From positions 1-28,473 of the IMG/VR virus record IMGVR_UViG_3300012944_000050: a DNA stretch of 28,473 bases, one strand, 5' to 3'. Shown here piece after piece: positions 3,451 through 28,473 of the stretch. Both the position numbers and the translations under genes were made by a program. The DNA comes from a virus. The notes beneath the pieces were generated by a model. That model saw nothing but the letters and a program-made list of their open reading frames with translations. It searched no databases and was not told the DNA's origin. Each line of letters begins with the position of its first letter. Position 1 is the first letter of the stretch.

Positions 3451-6181
3451 AATCCTGTTTTTTCTACTGCTGTCGGTATTGAGGGCTGGGGCCGTCGAGG
3501 TTCCGGGGCCGAGCGCTTCTCTGCTGGCCAATCCGACCTATAGCGGCGGGATTGGACTAATCTATAGTTGCGTCACCAACTATTACGTCGCGACGACCGG
3601 GAACGATGGCAACAACGGAAGCATCGGTGCTCCCTGGCTTACGATTCAACATGCTAATGCGCTCACCCGTTCCCCAGGCGATTGCATCAACGTCGCAGCC
3701 GGCACGTATGTTTGGACAACCGCATTTACGACCTCGCGGGGCGGCAATCTTGCTGCGCCGACGGGTTATGTCGTCTATCGCTGCCAGACGCTCAATGCCT
3801 GTTTGATCACCAATAGCGGTGGCGCGACTGGAAATTTCTGGGCCGTCACCGCGCCCTATGTCGTCATCGATGGATTCGACATCAACGGCGGAATCGATCC
3901 AAACTCATATTTCGGCGGAGCCGTGGCGTGCATCGTGTCCAGCATTCCGAGCACGACGACGCCAAGTCATCATCTGTGGATTCTCAACAACAAAATCCAC
4001 AATTGCAATCAGGCTGGAATCGGGCTTCAGGATAGCGAGTATTATTTTTCCATCCACAATGAAATATACAACAACGCGTGGCAATCCAGCTTCCAGGGCT
4101 CCGGCATCGGCTACGTCTCCCTGAAGCGTCTAGGCGACAACCTCAATCCGTATCCACCCTATACGCGTACCGCAGCCGACCTCACGATTGCGCCGTTCAA
4201 TAATATCGTGTCATTCAATTTTGTGCATGACAACGGTTGCCCGCTTTGCACCAGCTTTGCAGCATCGTTCACCACGACGGCAAGCACTCATTCCAATCTC
4301 ACGCTCGATACTTTGGCGTCGGCCGGAACGTCCGTTTCGTTCACCGGATCGATTGCCGGCACGACATTGACTGCCCCGGCTTCTCCGGCTCTCGTCGTGG
4401 GACAGGTGCTTAGCGGCGCCACATCGACGGCCGTCAGCCAGAGCACGGTAATAACCGGCGGTTCCGGCACGACCTGGACCATCAACAATTCACAGACAGT
4501 CGGCAGTCAGGCAATGACTGCGGCGACGCTCGTGCCGATGACCCTGATTGCAGGACCATGTGTTCAGCCGATGACGTATATCAGCTCAATCGTCGCCGGC
4601 ACTATTACGATGACGAGGCCAGCGACATGCACGCAAGCCGGCGGCACCTATATTTTCTATACAGAAAATGGAGGCCATTCTGACGGCAACGGCATCATCA
4701 TGGATACGTTCTGCGGCGTCTCCTGTGGCGGAACGGGAACGCAGGATTATAACTATGTCAATAACCAGACATTGGTCTCGTTCAACGATTCACAGTTCAA
4801 CGGCGGTCGTGGCGTCCATATGTTCGGGACGTACTATACGACGGTCGCGAATAACTCGACATATCACAATGGGCTTGATCTCAGCTTTCAGGGATTAGTC
4901 GCTGATCTTAGTCAATCCGGAACAATAAATGGAGCCTGGTACAGCAACGTCGCCTATGCAGTCGATACGATTAATCCGTACTGCTTCGGCGGCAATCAAT
5001 GCACAAATTCAATGATAGCCGGAAATGGCAGGTTGGTCGATACGAACCTCATATATTTCAATAATGTCATTTTTGGTTCAGGTGGACTTAAATTATTTAA
5101 TAATGATACGACGTATTGGGTTAATGCCAATAATAAGCCGAACAAGGACCCTTTTTACGTCGATGAAACGAGCGCGACAATCGGAAATTTGCATCTCCAA
5201 GCCACATCTCCCGCTATCGGTTATGCGTTTCCGAGCGCGTTTTTCTATCTCCCCAAAGGGACAAATGATGCCGGTGCCTACCAAAGCGGAAGTTCGGGAA
5301 TATTCTCCGTAAAGGCATTCGCCATCGCGCCACAGACGGGCGGCAACATCGCAAACTTTGATGGCGGTATCAGCACGGTCAGCAATGTATCGATTCCGAC
5401 GCCGCTTACATGTTCGCAGGCAACATCGTTTCTTGCCCGTACATCAGGCTTGGACAGGGTCCATATCGACGGGTATTCGAACTTCATTTGCGGCCTGGTC
5501 GTGGACGGCGTGTTCGCAAAGCTCGATGTGCTTTACATGTTTGCGACGCAAAATGCTCCGACCTCGCTCCTTAATCTTGTATCCGCGAGCTTTAACGGAA
5601 CTGCAAGCGGAAGCCCTCCGTGGGTTCAAAATAAAGGTTACACAGGAAACGATGCGGCAACGCCAACCCGGTTTATAGACACGGGATATATTCCGTCGAG
5701 TTCGGGTGGCCATTATGCGCAGGACAGCGCTCACTTGTCGGTATGGAGCTTGACCAATACGCAAGACAGCAGCGGCGGAGACGCCATCGGAACAGCTAAT
5801 GTCGGATTCACACGGTTAAGGCCGCGGCTTAATGACGATAATTTCTATGTTGATATCAACAATAGCGCGTTCAATTTTACAGTATTTGCCAATACGGATT
5901 CGACCGGTCATTATTTGGGCAACCGCACGGTATCGACGACGATGACGGGATACAAGAACGCCTCGCTGGCCATCACGGCAGCGGATACATCCGCGGCGCA
6001 GAATTTCAGTCTCTATGTGCTTGCAACAAATGATAGCGGAAATGCGATAAATGGCAGCGGCAAGCAGATTGCCATGGCAAGCATCGGTGGCGGCCTCACG
6101 CAAACGGACATCACCAATCTTTGCCACAGGACGAATATTTATCTGACGGCAGTCGGCGCAGCCGCCAGCGGGATTTGCTGA
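3434..6181 (+). CDS. exported right-handed beta-helix protein with lectin-like C-terminus
   Basis: A 915-residue product from ATG 3434, with GGAG 3421-3424 nine bases upstream; the longer frame from 3392 would hide the signal. Residues 1-20 form a signal peptide (FFLLLSVLRAGA). Residues about 45-280 and 400-620 show beta-helix features: YYVATTGNDGNNGS, IDGFDINGG, ILNNKIHNCNQAGIGL. Residues about 295-363 hold a small beta module (SIAGTTLT ... WTINNSQTVGSQAMTA) also present in the fibre encoded at 23152-25272. Residues about 623-915 look like a concanavalin-type binding domain (HIDGYSNFICGLV, FIDTGYIPSS). A polysaccharide-binding or -degrading role is likely. The signal peptide is odd for a tailspike. 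Base composition is more AT-rich than in neighbouring genes, suggesting separate acquisition. Confidence 0.75.
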   Translation: MSIFSRILFFLLLSVLRAGAVEVPGPSASLLANPTYSGGIGLIYSCVTNYYVATTGNDGNNGSIGAPWLTIQHANALTRSPGDCINVAAGTYVWTTAFTTSRGGNLAAPTGYVVYRCQTLNACLITNSGGATGNFWAVTAPYVVIDGFDINGGIDPNSYFGGAVACIVSSIPSTTTPSHHLWILNNKIHNCNQAGIGLQDSEYYFSIHNEIYNNAWQSSFQGSGIGYVSLKRLGDNLNPYPPYTRTAADLTIAPFNNIVSFNFVHDNGCPLCTSFAASFTTTASTHSNLTLDTLASAGTSVSFTGSIAGTTLTAPASPALVVGQVLSGATSTAVSQSTVITGGSGTTWTINNSQTVGSQAMTAATLVPMTLIAGPCVQPMTYISSIVAGTITMTRPATCTQAGGTYIFYTENGGHSDGNGIIMDTFCGVSCGGTGTQDYNYVNNQTLVSFNDSQFNGGRGVHMFGTYYTTVANNSTYHNGLDLSFQGLVADLSQSGTINGAWYSNVAYAVDTINPYCFGGNQCTNSMIAGNGRLVDTNLIYFNNVIFGSGGLKLFNNDTTYWVNANNKPNKDPFYVDETSATIGNLHLQATSPAIGYAFPSAFFYLPKGTNDAGAYQSGSSGIFSVKAFAIAPQTGGNIANFDGGISTVSNVSIPTPLTCSQATSFLARTSGLDRVHIDGYSNFICGLVVDGVFAKLDVLYMFATQNAPTSLLNLVSASFNGTASGSPPWVQNKGYTGNDAATPTRFIDTGYIPSSSGGHYAQDSAHLSVWSLTNTQDSSGGDAIGTANVGFTRLRPRLNDDNFYVDINNSAFNFTVFANTDSTGHYLGNRTVSTTMTGYKNASLAITAADTSAAQNFSLYVLATNDSGNAINGSGKQIAMASIGGGLTQTDITNLCHRTNIYLTAVGAAASGIC

Positions 6182-25292: not shown

Positions 25293-25514
25293 ATGATGGA
25301 GCGTATGATTATTTTTTTAGCTTTGCTGTCTACGCCGGCTCTGTCACAGCAAATTCCAGATGCCTCAAAGCTTGCCCCCATCTACCAGCAGCAGCGCAAT
25401 CTCTACGCCGATGGGATGGCTCAATGCTACGTACAGGTGACCGATCTGCAAGCGCGCATCGCCGAGCTTGAAAAGCAGCTCGCGGCAGCTAAGGCCGCGA
25501 GCGAGCAGAAGTGA
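25293..25514 (+). CDS. small secreted coiled-coil protein
   Basis: A 73-residue product from ATG 25293; AAAGGAG at 25274-25280 is a strong ribosome site although slightly far, and the next in-frame ATG (25296) is almost as good. Residues 1-18 form a signal peptide (MIIFLALLSTPALS), followed by a short linker, one cysteine, and a coiled coil at about 48-70 (LQARIAELEKQLAAAKAA). The plan, signal plus short coiled coil, is like the minus-strand protein encoded at 20282-20626 and recalls parts of spanin systems, but no lipobox or partner is visible. It is the last gene of the plus-strand cluster; its stop is one base from the convergent gene's stop. Confidence 0.65.
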   Translation: MMERMIIFLALLSTPALSQQIPDASKLAPIYQQQRNLYADGMAQCYVQVTDLQARIAELEKQLAAAKAASEQK

Positions 25515-25515
25515 T

Positions 25516-25731
25516 TCACCTTGGCGCAAACCCCGCTTCCGCAAGCTCGCGCTGCAACATGCATACCGCCGCCCACATGACATCGGCTTCGCAACGACCG
25601 TCGTACTTCTTATGACGGTCCGCCAGTCCGACGCAGTCATTGTAGCCGATGCGCTTGACGAGCTGGGCCAGAGCGGCGGCTTCGTCGCGGGGAAGTTCCA
25701 AGGGAATCGTGATAGTGTGGTCGGTAGCCAT
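25516..25731 (-). CDS. small conserved phage protein (DUF7706-like), unknown function
   Basis: A 71-residue cytoplasmic product with AGGAG about 11 bases upstream on the minus strand. It runs TITIPLELPRDEAAALAQLV, then KRIGYNDCVGLADR, a short acidic insert, and a C-terminal helix ending LQRELAEAGFAPR. The pattern 'LPRDEAxALAQxxKRxG ... LQRxLAEAGFAPR' matches a family of short phage/prophage proteins of unknown function (I recall DUF7706; not checked). It is the last gene of the minus-strand operon, separated from tnpB by 121 bases containing a hairpin. Confidence 0.6.
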   Translation of the reverse strand: MATDHTITIPLELPRDEAAALAQLVKRIGYNDCVGLADRHKKYDGRCEADVMWAAVCMLQRELAEAGFAPR

Positions 25732-25767
25732 TGTGACTCTTTCTCCTGGTTAGAGTTGCGATGGTTA

Positions 25768-25802
25768 GGGCCGCTTTGGTGTCGCAAGCACCTTGGCGGC
25801 CC
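25768..25802 (-). ncRNA. GC-rich hairpin downstream of tnpB: candidate omega-RNA part or processing element
   Basis: On the minus strand, GGGCCGC pairs perfectly with GCGGCCC (outer arms 25796-25802 and 25768-25774). A 3-by-3 internal loop (CAA/AAA) and an inner GGTG/CACC stem follow, closed by a 7-base loop. It begins 51 bases after the tnpB stop and ends before the next gene's ribosome site. TnpB guide RNAs normally overlap the 3' end of tnpB and run downstream, so position and direction fit. No T tract follows on the minus strand, so an intrinsic terminator is less likely. A plain mRNA stability hairpin remains possible. No guide segment or element end could be identified. Confidence 0.35.
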
Positions 25803-25852
25803 GCTTTCCGGATCAGTCCTCTTACTCCGCTGCTTTGGCTGCTCCTGGAACC

Positions 25853-26899
25853 TCAGACTCCTCCTGCGAGCGATTGCAGCCCCAATCGGAGAATGTTCTT
25901 GGCGGCGTTTACGTCGCGATCGTGAGTCGTTTCGCAACCGCTACAAGTCCACTCTCTTATTCCAAGACCTGCGAGACCTTTCGGTCGCGACGACGGAAGT
26001 GCTCCGCACGCTGAGCAGGTCTGGGAAGTCCACGCCTCGGAGACCTCAAGCGTGCTGCCGCCATGCATAAGTGCCTTGTACGCCAGCATTTGCTTGAAGT
26101 CCGCCCAGCCGGCATCGAGCACACTCTTTGCTAGTCGGGTCTTGGCGAGCTTCGATGGACTCACATCGCCTATGATGATGAGCCCGTATTCGTTGGCAAG
26201 TTTTGTGCTCGCCTTGTGCAGGAAATCCTTGCGCCGATTAGCGATCTTGGCGTGAATTGTGCGTACTCGCTTCGGGGTCTTGCGCGCTCGCTGTGCCGTT
26301 GCGAGTCGCTCCTCGCTCTTGCGGTAGAATTGAGGAATTTCGATTTTGTCGCCGTTGGACAGTGTCGCGAGGTCTTTAAGACCCAGGTCGATACCGGTAT
26401 GGATAACCGGCGCGCGGTCAGCGCATTCCAGTTCGACAGGGCAATTGAGATACCAGCGCCCACGGGTATCCTGGTTGAAGTTTCCGGCGAGTATCTTGAT
26501 GTTGGGCTTGAGAACATCCCGCAGATGCATCGTCTCATAACGGACGCCGCGGAACGTGAAGCATTCGCCGTCGAAGCTGACGTGACCCGTACTGAATGGC
26601 ACCCAACCCAACGATTTGCGGTGACGCCACCGCAGCCACGGCTTGCGGTGTATGCGGCGCGCTGTGACATAAGCATTGCAGACGCGCTTGATCGTGTGGG
26701 CGTGAATATCGAGTTCCTTGCTGCTGCCGGCCGTAAGATATTGCAGGTCGTATTTCGACAGCCAGCGGTCCCAGCGAAGAACATGCCGTTGCGCTTCGTT
26801 GCAGTAGTTCCAAATGAAATTGACGGCGCGGGCCTGCCGATTGAGTTCCGATGCGTGACGATCTCGCAACCGTAATTTAATGGTTATGTTCGCTTTCAT
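25853..26899 (-). CDS. tnpB: TnpB-family RNA-guided endonuclease (RuvC, zinc ribbon)
   Basis: A 348-residue product from ATG 26899; the longer frame to 27001 runs inside the preceding gene and is rejected. N-terminal and helical RNA-binding region: residues 1-160 (VNFIWNYCNEAQ; LGWVPFSTGHV). RuvC-I: TGIDLGLKDLATLS with D171. RuvC-II: IIIGDVSPSKLAKTRLAKS with D245 where most TnpBs have Glu; E285 and E288 lie 40-43 residues on. Zinc ribbon: C295-S-A-C298 and C319-S-G-C322. RuvC-III: HDRDVNAAKNIL (D327, D329). Length is normal to slightly short for TnpB. No tnpA is nearby. The start overlaps the preceding gene's stop (ATGA), so it is built into a phage operon. It may cut DNA guided by an omega-RNA, aiding mobility or competition with other phages; activity is unproven. 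Confidence 0.88.
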   Translation of the reverse strand: MKANITIKLRLRDRHASELNRQARAVNFIWNYCNEAQRHVLRWDRWLSKYDLQYLTAGSSKELDIHAHTIKRVCNAYVTARRIHRKPWLRWRHRKSLGWVPFSTGHVSFDGECFTFRGVRYETMHLRDVLKPNIKILAGNFNQDTRGRWYLNCPVELECADRAPVIHTGIDLGLKDLATLSNGDKIEIPQFYRKSEERLATAQRARKTPKRVRTIHAKIANRRKDFLHKASTKLANEYGLIIIGDVSPSKLAKTRLAKSVLDAGWADFKQMLAYKALMHGGSTLEVSEAWTSQTCSACGALPSSRPKGLAGLGIREWTCSGCETTHDRDVNAAKNILRLGLQSLAGGV

Positions 26900-27345
26900 T
26901 CCGCTGCTTCCAAATGCTGATGGGGAGGATTGCCGCCGAGTGTGCAGTCCCATGCGGTGGCAATATAGTTGATCGTTTCCGTGAGCTTCTGAGGCTCGCA
27001 ACGGCCGGCGGCGATGTAAGCCGTCAGGACCTCCGAGACGAATAGCTGTTTGGGCGTGCGGAAGACAGCTCCAGCCGGCGGCGCCGAAACAGGACCAGCT
27101 TGCCGATAAGTCCCTGAAACAAAAGGCTCGGAGCTTGGCGCCGGAAGACCCATGGTCACCCGTTTGGCGCTGACGATGTTGGTGCCAAAATCGTTATCGA
27201 CCGTTTCGACGTTATAGCTTGCGCCCTGTTCAATTTGCCACTTGGCAAGCTTGTCGTTGAAGCAGCCGAGACGGCGCCCTTCAGTGGTGATGATCTTACT
27301 TTTCTTAGGTCCAGTGTCGATCGATGCTACGGTGATCATGGGCAT
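26896..27345 (-). CDS. OB-fold/ssDNA-binding-like phage protein
   Basis: A 149-residue product with a perfect ribosome site (AAAGGAGG, 27354-27361) 8 bases before ATG 27345. Residues 10-60 look like a small beta barrel (KSKIITTEGRRLGCFNDKLA, then WQIEQGASYNVETV). Residues 65-105 are a Pro/Ala/Ser linker, and residues about 108-145 form a conserved helical tail (EVLTAYIAAGRCEPQKLTET, INYIATAWDCTLGG). This plan, barrel plus linker plus helical tail beside recombination-type genes, suggests a single-stranded DNA-binding or OB-fold accessory protein. Direct homology was not verified. Its stop overlaps the tnpB start. Confidence 0.5.
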   Translation of the reverse strand: MPMITVASIDTGPKKSKIITTEGRRLGCFNDKLAKWQIEQGASYNVETVDNDFGTNIVSAKRVTMGLPAPSSEPFVSGTYRQAGPVSAPPAGAVFRTPKQLFVSEVLTAYIAAGRCEPQKLTETINYIATAWDCTLGGNPPHQHLEAAE

Positions 27346-27348
27346 GGC

Positions 27349-27624
27349 TCAGTCCTCCTTTAGGGCAAGGACGATGGCGGCTTCAACGGCCTCTACTTGT
27401 GCCGTTGAGAAATGGCCGTCGCCAGTATCATGCTCATGGCGCATCTCCCGCTGGATTGCCTTCAATGCCTTCAGCATAGGGCCATAGGAATTGACGGCAC
27501 GGAGAATGAATACAGCGTCTGTAAGGCCATGGGCTGTTGCGGGACAGACCTCTATCGGCCCTTGTCGTCCACGAAGATCATGGCCGACGCGATACCAAGG
27601 GGTTGGTGTATGCTCGGTGCTCAT
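27349..27624 (-). CDS. small phage protein of the 'HTPTPW' type
   Basis: A 91-residue product opening MSTEHTPTPWYRVGHD, then a strand-rich part (GPIEVCPATAHG), then DAVFILRAVNSYGPMLKALKAI and a C-terminal helix. The HTPTPW start followed by 'AxFIxRAVNSxxxxxxALKAI' is a very common signature of small early phage/prophage proteins of unknown function. The start overlaps the preceding gene's stop by ATGA; its stop is 3 bases before the next start. Real and conserved as a type, but without assigned activity. Confidence 0.7.
   Translation of the reverse strand: MSTEHTPTPWYRVGHDLRGRQGPIEVCPATAHGLTDAVFILRAVNSYGPMLKALKAIQREMRHEHDTGDGHFSTAQVEAVEAAIVLALKED
27354..27361 (-). promoter_or_regulatory. consensus ribosome-binding site for the OB-fold-like gene
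   Basis: AAAGGAGG on the minus strand, 8 bases before ATG 27345. It decides that start over the next Met codon (27339) and implies strong translation of the OB-fold-like gene and, by coupling, of tnpB. Confidence 0.7.
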
Positions 27625-28388
27625 AGCGTGCGCTCCGTTTCAACGTGAATACCGGCTGGAAGTTGGTCGAAGGCCTTCCGGTAAGCCCTGGCGGCCGTCA
27701 GGATCGCATCTGAGATGACGGCGGGAAGCTCTCCGTCGTCGGTCATTTCGCTGATGGCGGCCTTCCAGTCGGTCACGGTGAGGATTTCCTTGTTCCGCAG
27801 AGTGGAGACCTTGCCGAAGCATCCTCCGATCCGGACCCGCCTTTCCCGTTCCGCCAACTGGAAAGCCCGATTGGCTTTTCCGAAGTCCCGGAAAGCTTGG
27901 TTGGCCTCCCGAGAGGCGGCGGCGATATCCACGTCACAGACGCCCGCGGCGGTCGTAGCGGCGGCTTCCCGTTCGCGTTCCTCGGCTTCGCGGGTTTTGC
28001 GCTCGGCTTCAACGGCGGCTGCACGGGCGGCCTCCGCAGCGGCTTGGCGCTCGGCTTCAAGCTTGCGGGCGAAGACGGTCAGGCGGGACCGCAGCTCGAT
28101 CAGAAGCTTGTCCCAAACGCCTGACTTGCTGCTCGCGTTGTGCCAGCGGTGATATTCGGCGTTGATCGCTGTCACTTGCTCGTTGAGCGGGCCGACTTTG
28201 GCCTTGCGCTCGTCATCGATCGCCTTCAGGGCGGCTGCCATGCGGTCCAGGTGAGGCTTTGCCTCCCTTGCCTCCTCCTCATTGGCAATGACGGGAAAGT
28301 CTTTGAGGAACTGGCTCAGGGCCTCGATGGTGGGTTCGGCGAGCTCGATAGCGCCGGGGGGATTGTTATGGCCGACGAGAGCGTTCAT
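27621..28388 (-). CDS. coiled-coil phage protein of the recombination/early region, unknown function
   Basis: A 255-residue product from ATG 28388, which has GAGGAG at a 7-base spacing; an alternative start at 28403 adds five residues and lacks such a site. Opening MNALVGHNNPPGAIELAEPT; residues about 45-95 helical (LKAIDDERKAKVGPLNEQV); residues about 100-150 a long Ala/Glu/Arg coiled coil (AAAVEAERKTREAEERERE). Residues 190-255 contain RIGGCFGKVSTLRNKEILTV, TDWKAAISEM and an ending similar to nuclease-module partner proteins of phages (GKxxTLR ... VTD ... A.RA). The 'GHNNPP' opening is common in phage proteins near DNA-recombination genes. I cannot assign a biochemical role. Confidence 0.6.
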   Translation of the reverse strand: MNALVGHNNPPGAIELAEPTIEALSQFLKDFPVIANEEEAREAKPHLDRMAAALKAIDDERKAKVGPLNEQVTAINAEYHRWHNASSKSGVWDKLLIELRSRLTVFARKLEAERQAAAEAARAAAVEAERKTREAEEREREAAATTAAGVCDVDIAAASREANQAFRDFGKANRAFQLAERERRVRIGGCFGKVSTLRNKEILTVTDWKAAISEMTDDGELPAVISDAILTAARAYRKAFDQLPAGIHVETERTL

Positions 28389-28473
28389 TTTCGATCTCCT
28401 CAAGCTGGTCTAAAAGGTCGTCGACCGCTTCCTGCTTGGTGCGGCCATAGCCAATTGGCGAGCCGAGGTCGTA
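28366..28473 (-). CDS. C-terminal end of a small phage protein (cut by right edge)
   Basis: The frame is open from the right edge and stops at TAA (28366-28368). The visible 35 residues read YDLGSPIGYGRTKQEAVDDL, then a charged helix ending ENERSRRP. The 'GSPIGYGRTxxEAVxDL' ending is familiar from short phage proteins of unknown function. It overlaps the next gene's start by 23 bases, so the minus-strand operon continues beyond the window. Confidence 0.6.
   Translation of the reverse strand, partial: YDLGSPIGYGRTKQEAVDDLLDQLEEIENERSRRP

What the first reader, a model, noticed from the sequence alone, without database searches (positions are those of the whole stretch)
25853..27345. tnpB translationally coupled into a phage operon without tnpA
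The tnpB start codon overlaps the stop of an OB-fold-like phage gene (ATGA), which itself has a perfect ribosome site. A freshly inserted IS605-type element would carry its own left end, and none fits. This suggests an RNA-guided nuclease taken into the phage's early-expression programme, possibly for phage-phage competition, homing or regulation.
Basis: partly seen in the sequence, partly recalled or inferred. Interest (0 to 1): 0.65.

Follow-up and report, generated by a model that had tools for sequence, protein, structure and literature searches.

The report
Immobilised TnpB nuclease in phage operon
A phage has kept a gene for an RNA-guided DNA-cutting enzyme from a jumping gene, wired it into one of its own operons and lost the parts needed to jump, while the enzyme's active site and guide RNA look intact; the same thing seems to have happened several times in related phages.

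Summary
TnpB (25853-26899, minus) starts on the ATGA that ends an orphan 149-aa gene with a strong ribosome site. No left end and no tnpA are present. Relatives at 57-69% identity, mostly in phage contigs, show the ancestral form: IS605-like elements with hairpins at both ends, inserted 3' of TGAN. In the window copy the left end and the right-end hairpin are gone, and the tail that ends GTCAC in mobile relatives reads GCCAA. The omegaRNA scaffold survives: 38 of 43 pairs of a consensus made without the window form here, which none of 5000 synonymous recodings matched. The RuvC triad (D171, E288, D329) is intact. The missing canonical glutamate is the family-wide 'alternative glutamate' state, so this is not a nuclease-dead TldR by sequence. 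End-less, GCC-tailed copies are polyphyletic (AU p about 1e-6), so immobilisation recurred. In two relatives clearly, and weakly here, 10-13 nt of the guide also stand upstream of tnpB, perhaps a scar of TnpB cutting an empty allele and one-sided repair. Best reading: an immobilised, nuclease-competent TnpB-omegaRNA unit, most likely a homing or allele-exclusion nuclease. Target, expression and activity are untested.

The parts
25853..26899 (-). tnpB, 348 aa: TnpB of the alternative-glutamate class (D171, E288, D329; G244 at the canonical Glu position; Cys 295/298/319/322)
   Evidence: PF07282 82.8 bits, PF01385 60.1 bits; phrog_506; alignments A1 and A4; AlphaFold2 mean pLDDT 85.5 and Foldseek best hit TnpB 8h1j
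26896..26899 (-). ATGA: stop of the upstream gene overlapping the start of tnpB
26896..27345 (-). Orphan 149-aa gene upstream of tnpB
27354..27361 (-). Shine-Dalgarno AAAGGAGG of the 149-aa gene
   Evidence: sequence
25835..26024 (-). omegaRNA scaffold: 3' part of tnpB plus 18 nt after its stop
   Evidence: covarying consensus of 14 sequences; retained in the window beyond coding constraint
25835..25845 (-). omegaRNA 3' tail GGAGCAGCCAA (GGAGCAGTCAC in most mobile relatives)
25815..25834 (-). Predicted guide AGCAGCGGAGTAAGAGGACT
   Evidence: position directly after the tail, by alignment with relatives; inference
26900..26909 (-). AAGCAGCGGA, direct repeat of the tail/guide junction, directly before the tnpB start codon (possible target stub)
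25516..25731 (-). Downstream gene, 71 aa, DUF7706
   Evidence: PF24806 61.1 bits
27349..27624 (-). 91-aa gene of the same operon
27621..28403 (-). 260-aa exonuclease-like gene (phrog_10477) of the same operon

Best explanation
The window carries an immobilised descendant of an IS605-type tnpB element that now works as a phage operon gene. Shown by sequence: it lies in a co-directional phage operon, tnpB starting on the ATGA of the preceding gene; the left end, the right-end hairpin and the GTCAC end of the mobile relatives are gone; the omegaRNA scaffold and the RuvC triad are kept. Inferred: TnpB binds an RNA cut from its own transcript and cuts DNA that carries the guide AGCAGCGGAGTAAGAGG next to a TAM. 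Because a TnpB guide records the sequence next to its own insertion site, the natural target is the tnpB-less allele at the 3' end of the upstream gene in co-infecting relatives. Cutting it would favour copying of the tnpB allele (homing) or exclude the rival genome. The 10-nt repeat before tnpB may be a stub of such a cut target that was repaired from one side.
For: Relatives with both ends: LE HMM hits of 21-43 bits in nine elements, none in the window. TGAN lies 10 nt before the left-end motif in seven of seven elements that keep its GCGAGCGC-like start, so target = TGAN. omegaRNA: 94.5% of cells paired, 16 pairs changed on both sides, 0 of 500 shuffles as high; 38 of 43 pairs of a consensus made without the window form in it, synonymous recoding mean 27.7, maximum 36, 0 of 5000 reach it. 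Active site: E288 lies six residues before the zinc-finger Cys, the Ealt position of PMC10711439. Third-position divergence about twice that of positions 1 and 2. Copies without a left end and with a GCC tail are not one clade (AU p 1.1e-6; at least 3 changes forced by supported branches). Upstream repeats of the guide start: 12 nt in L012 and 13 nt in L021, 10 nt in the window and L018. In L012 the repeat follows a perfect ATGAC, and the sequence behind it aligns with the left-end-proximal part of L176. TnpB cuts 15-21 bp from the TAM and homing was proposed by its discoverers (PMC8612924).
Against: No empty-site relative could be found: the upstream gene is an orphan and the 20-nt guide has no exact match in viral contigs. 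The window's own repeat is short, and 10-nt matches also arise between unrelated loci (2 of 342 cross comparisons); the sequence before it (TTGGA) is not a perfect TGAN. One further GCC-tailed locus, L198, has no repeat. Purifying selection may predate immobilisation, because the divergence to every relative is large. Expression and cleavage are untested.
Confidence: 0.55

Rival explanations
1. Neutral relic: a tnpB-only insertion that lost its ends by chance and is on the way out, kept only because it does no harm at an operon junction.
For: Many relatives sit at junctions where neighbouring genes stay readable; ends are lost repeatedly; no target is known.
Against: The 348-codon frame is intact with all catalytic and zinc residues; the omegaRNA keeps pairing far beyond synonymous expectation, including compensated changes in stem 148-165; tail and scaffold persist in several independent end-less lineages.
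Confidence: 0.2
2. Phage weapon or defence: the guide targets another phage, a plasmid or the host genome rather than the allelic empty site.
For: Guides differ between loci; several copies lie in operons with recombination or methyltransferase genes.
Against: In relatives the guide is simply the flanking gene (GcrA, methylase and GP46 continue right behind the right end); no exact 20-nt target in viral contigs.
Confidence: 0.12
3. RNA-guided regulator: TnpB binds without cutting, using a short (9-13 nt) seed match near its own promoter or the upstream gene, for example for autoregulation.
For: Seed-length repeats upstream of tnpB in four GCC-tailed loci and in none of ten GTC-tailed ones; TldR precedents (PMC13418256).
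Against: The triad is intact, unlike TldR; only L012 has a perfect TAM before the repeat; two of the four repeats are only 10 nt long, a length that also turns up by chance; the other GCC-tailed loci have none.
Confidence: 0.1
4. A recent mobile IS insertion whose left end was merely overlooked.
For: Close relatives do have clean ends.
Against: tnpB begins on the stop codon of the upstream gene, leaving no room for a left end; HMMs find neither end; the tail lacks GTCAC.
Confidence: 0.03

Closest known systems
TnpB of IS200/IS605 elements (ISDra2 TnpB, PDB 8h1j, 8exa)
   Same: Fold, RuvC and zinc ribbon, omegaRNA made from the 3' end of the gene, guide directly behind the RNA tail; relatives insert behind TGAN, compared with TTGAT for ISDra2
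   Different: Window copy lacks tnpA, left end and right-end hairpin; the RuvC-II glutamate is at the alternative position
Ealt TnpBs (D-Phi-G plus alternative Glu clade, Yoon et al. 2023, PMC10711439)
   Same: DLG motif, Glu six residues before the zinc finger, canonical Glu replaced by Gly
   Different: Those are described as transposon-borne; this one is immobilised in a phage operon
TldR, TnpB-like nuclease-dead repressors of prophages (PMC13418256)
   Same: tnpB lineage kept by phages outside a transposon, guide RNA retained
   Different: The RuvC triad is intact here and no partner gene such as fliC is seen
Group I intron homing endonucleases and TnpB 'homing' or gene drive (PMC8612924, PMC11870625)
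   Same: Proposed way of working: cut the empty allele so that the occupied one is copied
   Different: RNA-guided, no intron; activity not shown here

Membership tests
TnpB (RNA-guided nuclease) | OrfB_IS605 and Cas12f1-like TNB domains above the curated cut-offs | tested here: met
   60.1 bits (cut-off 30.5) and 82.8 bits (cut-off 26.3)
TnpB (RNA-guided nuclease) | Complete D-E-D RuvC triad and zinc ribbon | tested here: met
   D171, E288 (alternative position), D329, C295/C298/C319/C322 invariant in 26 sequences; alternative position as defined in PMC10711439
TnpB (RNA-guided nuclease) | omegaRNA from the 3' end of the gene | tested here: met
   Covarying structure, retained in the window; transcript itself not tested
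TnpB (RNA-guided nuclease) | RNA-guided DNA cleavage | not testable with these tools
   needs biochemistry
IS200/IS605 mobile element | Left and right ends with hairpins | tested here: not met
   no HMM hit for either end in the window, hits in relatives
IS200/IS605 mobile element | tnpA (Y1) in the element or in trans | tested here: not met
   none in the record; the record may be a fragment, and trans supply cannot be excluded
TldR | Loss of RuvC catalytic residues | tested here: not met
   canonical Glu is Gly, but this is family-wide and compensated by E288
Homing nuclease of phages | Occupied and empty alleles at one locus, with the target spanning the insertion site | tested here: inconclusive
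   no tnpB-less relative found

The most novel reading that the evidence does not exclude
Phages repeatedly and independently turn mobile Ealt TnpB elements into fixed operonic homing nucleases. The conversion is made by TnpB itself: it cuts the empty allele, and one-sided repair joins a 10-13-nt TAM-proximal target stub to the element, deleting the left end, after which the GTCAC end drifts to GCCA while the omegaRNA is kept.
Probability: 0.25. Interest if true: 0.78.

Novelty: new variant of a known kind. Interest (0 to 1): 0.52.

Why it matters
The phage TnpB exaptation described in the papers I could read is nuclease-dead (TldR). A recurrent, apparently nuclease-competent, end-less form would show a second route from transposon to phage gene, would give natural test cases for RNA-guided homing in phages, and would explain how these compact nucleases persist without a transposase. 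The stub hypothesis would make DNA scars of TnpB cleavage readable in genomes.

Tried and rejected
TldR was considered because the canonical RuvC-II Glu is Gly; rejected because all 26 aligned relatives share it together with E288. A hidden left end upstream was tested with an HMM and not found. A relative with an empty site was sought with the upstream gene (viral contigs, phages, 13 related records), the downstream gene and the guide 20-mer; none found (the downstream gene has one distant phage match). A search for relatives of the phage by its internal virion protein gave none. The one-clade hypothesis for end-less copies was rejected by the AU test. The long downstream ORF in another frame (25365-25937 minus) was taken as spurious because the DUF7706 match is to the overlapping 71-aa gene. 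A pattern scan for more GCC-tailed copies gave one new locus, L198, without an upstream repeat. Rfam found nothing in the window.

Full report
WHAT IS THERE. The minus strand of the window's right part is an operon: a 260-aa exonuclease-like gene (27621-28403), a 91-aa gene (27349-27624), an orphan 149-aa gene (26896-27345), tnpB (25853-26899) and, after a 121-nt gap, a 71-aa DUF7706 gene (25516-25731). The tnpB ATG overlaps the stop of the 149-aa gene as ATGA; the 260- and 91-aa genes overlap in the same way, so this is the operon's normal style. There is no Y1 transposase in the record.

THE PROTEIN. P0001 matches OrfB_IS605 and the Cas12f1-like TNB domain and, by sequence, ISDra2 TnpB. Where ISDra2 has its RuvC-II glutamate, P0001 has Gly244. 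All 26 aligned relatives have Gly there and Glu at position 288, six residues before the first zinc-finger cysteine. That is the 'alternative E' arrangement described for Fanzors and a class of TnpBs (PMC10711439), with DLG in RuvC-I. So the missing canonical Glu is not inactivation. The AlphaFold2 model (mean pLDDT 85.5) matches TnpB-omegaRNA-DNA structures best (8h1j, E 7e-21).

RELATIVES. Viral contigs hold about eighteen distinct copies, and genome contigs two, at about 57-69% identity. Among 384 other alphaproteobacterial genomes sampled across the class, none has a close copy (one weaker match at 44%). The different search patterns used for the two collections make the phage bias suggestive only. 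In L002, L013, L014, L016, L019, L027, L090, L136 and L176 the gene lies in an element with a left-end hairpin (GCGAGCGCAAGCCCCGTCCTTCAGGGCGGGGATAGCGAG type) and a right-end hairpin ending GGAGCAGTCAC or close to it. TGAN stands ten bases before the left-end motif in L013, L014, L016, L019, L090, L136 and L176, which fits an IS605 target; ISDra2 uses TTGAT (PMC8612924).

A SIDE FINDING ON INSERTION. In most of these elements the target TGAN belongs to a gene's start (ATGAN). The host start codon reads in frame through the left end into tnpB in seven of nine cases (L002, L013, L016, L019, L027, L054, L136), and an ATG overlapping or just before the tnpB stop, preceded by an AAGGAG-like site, reads through the right end (M...KPRPSGRGAVT) into the rest of the interrupted gene: GcrA in L013, an N6/N4 methylase in L014, phage GP46 in L054, an alanine-racemase-like protein in L090. 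L178 shows the same leader without tnpB. The hairpin is stop-free in all three frames, so selection on insertions may explain this without special design.

LOSS OF MOBILITY IN THE WINDOW. HMMs of both ends find the relatives but not the window. The tail reads GGAGCAGCCAA instead of GGAGCAGTCAC. The same T-to-C change is seen in L012, L015, L018, L021, L024 and L198, and by eye in L017 and L023. The left-end HMM finds no convincing left end in any of the eight such copies in the tree (L023 has a 2.9-bit match), and in L015, L017, L018, L023 and L024 the tnpB frame runs through the tail. These copies are not one clade: the tree needs six changes, supported branches force at least three, and the AU test rejects one clade (p 1.1e-6). 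The label was chosen after looking at the sequences, so this shows recurrence rather than a rate.

THE omegaRNA IS KEPT. The 3' 200 nt of 14 relatives fold into a consensus with 94.5% of cells paired, 16 pairs changed on both sides and 0 of 500 shuffles as high. Stem 148-165 is CGAUUG/CAAUCG in the window and CGUGUC/GACACG in many others. A consensus made without the window gives 43 testable pairs; the window forms 38. Random synonymous recoding of its coding part gives 27.7 on average, at most 36 in 5000 trials. Of the consensus, the right-end hairpin is what is missing.

THE GUIDE AND A POSSIBLE SCAR. The guide should be AGCAGCGGAGTAAGAGGACT (25834-25815). Ten nucleotides at the tail/guide junction, AAGCAGCGGA, also stand directly before the tnpB start (17-nt match at 82%). 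They encode the end of the 149-aa protein (..EAAE, then TGA; downstream GAG TAA in the same frame). L012 and L021 have 12- and 13-nt repeats that start at the same place behind the tail, L018 a 10-nt one; ten GTC-tailed loci have none over 7; across loci, matches of 10 or more occur in 2 of 342 comparisons. In L012 the upstream copy follows a perfect ATGAC, and the sequence behind it aligns with the part of L176 that follows its left end (score 47, shuffles at most 37). This is what one-sided repair after TnpB cut an empty allele would leave. It is an inference: the window and L018 repeats are short, their TAMs are imperfect, and a new GCC-tailed locus has none.

HOW IT PROBABLY WORKS. TnpB guides record the flank of the insertion; homing by cleavage of the empty allele was proposed for ISDra2, and a gene drive of this kind was reported in plasmids (PMC8612924, PMC11870625). 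An immobile copy in a phage operon would thus act on tnpB-less relatives during co-infection. Cleavage, RNA processing, expression time and target are not shown. A neutral relic remains possible, but the RNA and protein constraints speak against long decay.

NOVELTY. TnpB, Ealt TnpB, TnpB homing and phage TldR are known. The end-less, GCC-tailed, apparently nuclease-competent phage form, arisen more than once, is to my knowledge undescribed; the literature search was limited to open-access papers, and two central papers (Wiegand 2024; Altae-Tran 2023) were not held.

Noticed in passing
L013 3926-5604, L014 2665-3690, L019, L027, L054, L090, L136, L002, L016: Mobile relatives sit 3' of TGAN at gene starts (ATGAN). 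An ATG overlapping or just before the tnpB stop reads in frame through the right end (M..KPRPSGRGAVT) into the interrupted gene, so the element may restore translation of its host gene.
   Followed up: partly
L178, RE end at position 3963 of the reverse complement: A tnpB-less, MITE-like derivative with the same right end and the same in-frame leader into a downstream gene.
   Followed up: no
25762-25804 minus; L012 3910-3955; L022 3908-3950; L176 about 615-665: A hairpin motif GGGCC..GGTG..CACC..GGCCCTAACC stands before the DUF7706 gene here and between left end (or its former place) and tnpB in L012, L022 and L176; no Rfam match in the sources searched. Window similarity is marginal (39 against a shuffle maximum of 35).
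   Followed up: partly
L003 3573-6453: A more distant relative (54%) has tnpA overlapping tnpB, followed by a second tnpB in tandem.
   Followed up: no
L024 5041-5089, L018 5079-5104, L015 4235-4256: In these end-less copies the tnpB reading frame runs through the omegaRNA tail and guide and overlaps the next start codon as ATGA, so the guide is also coding sequence.
   Followed up: partly
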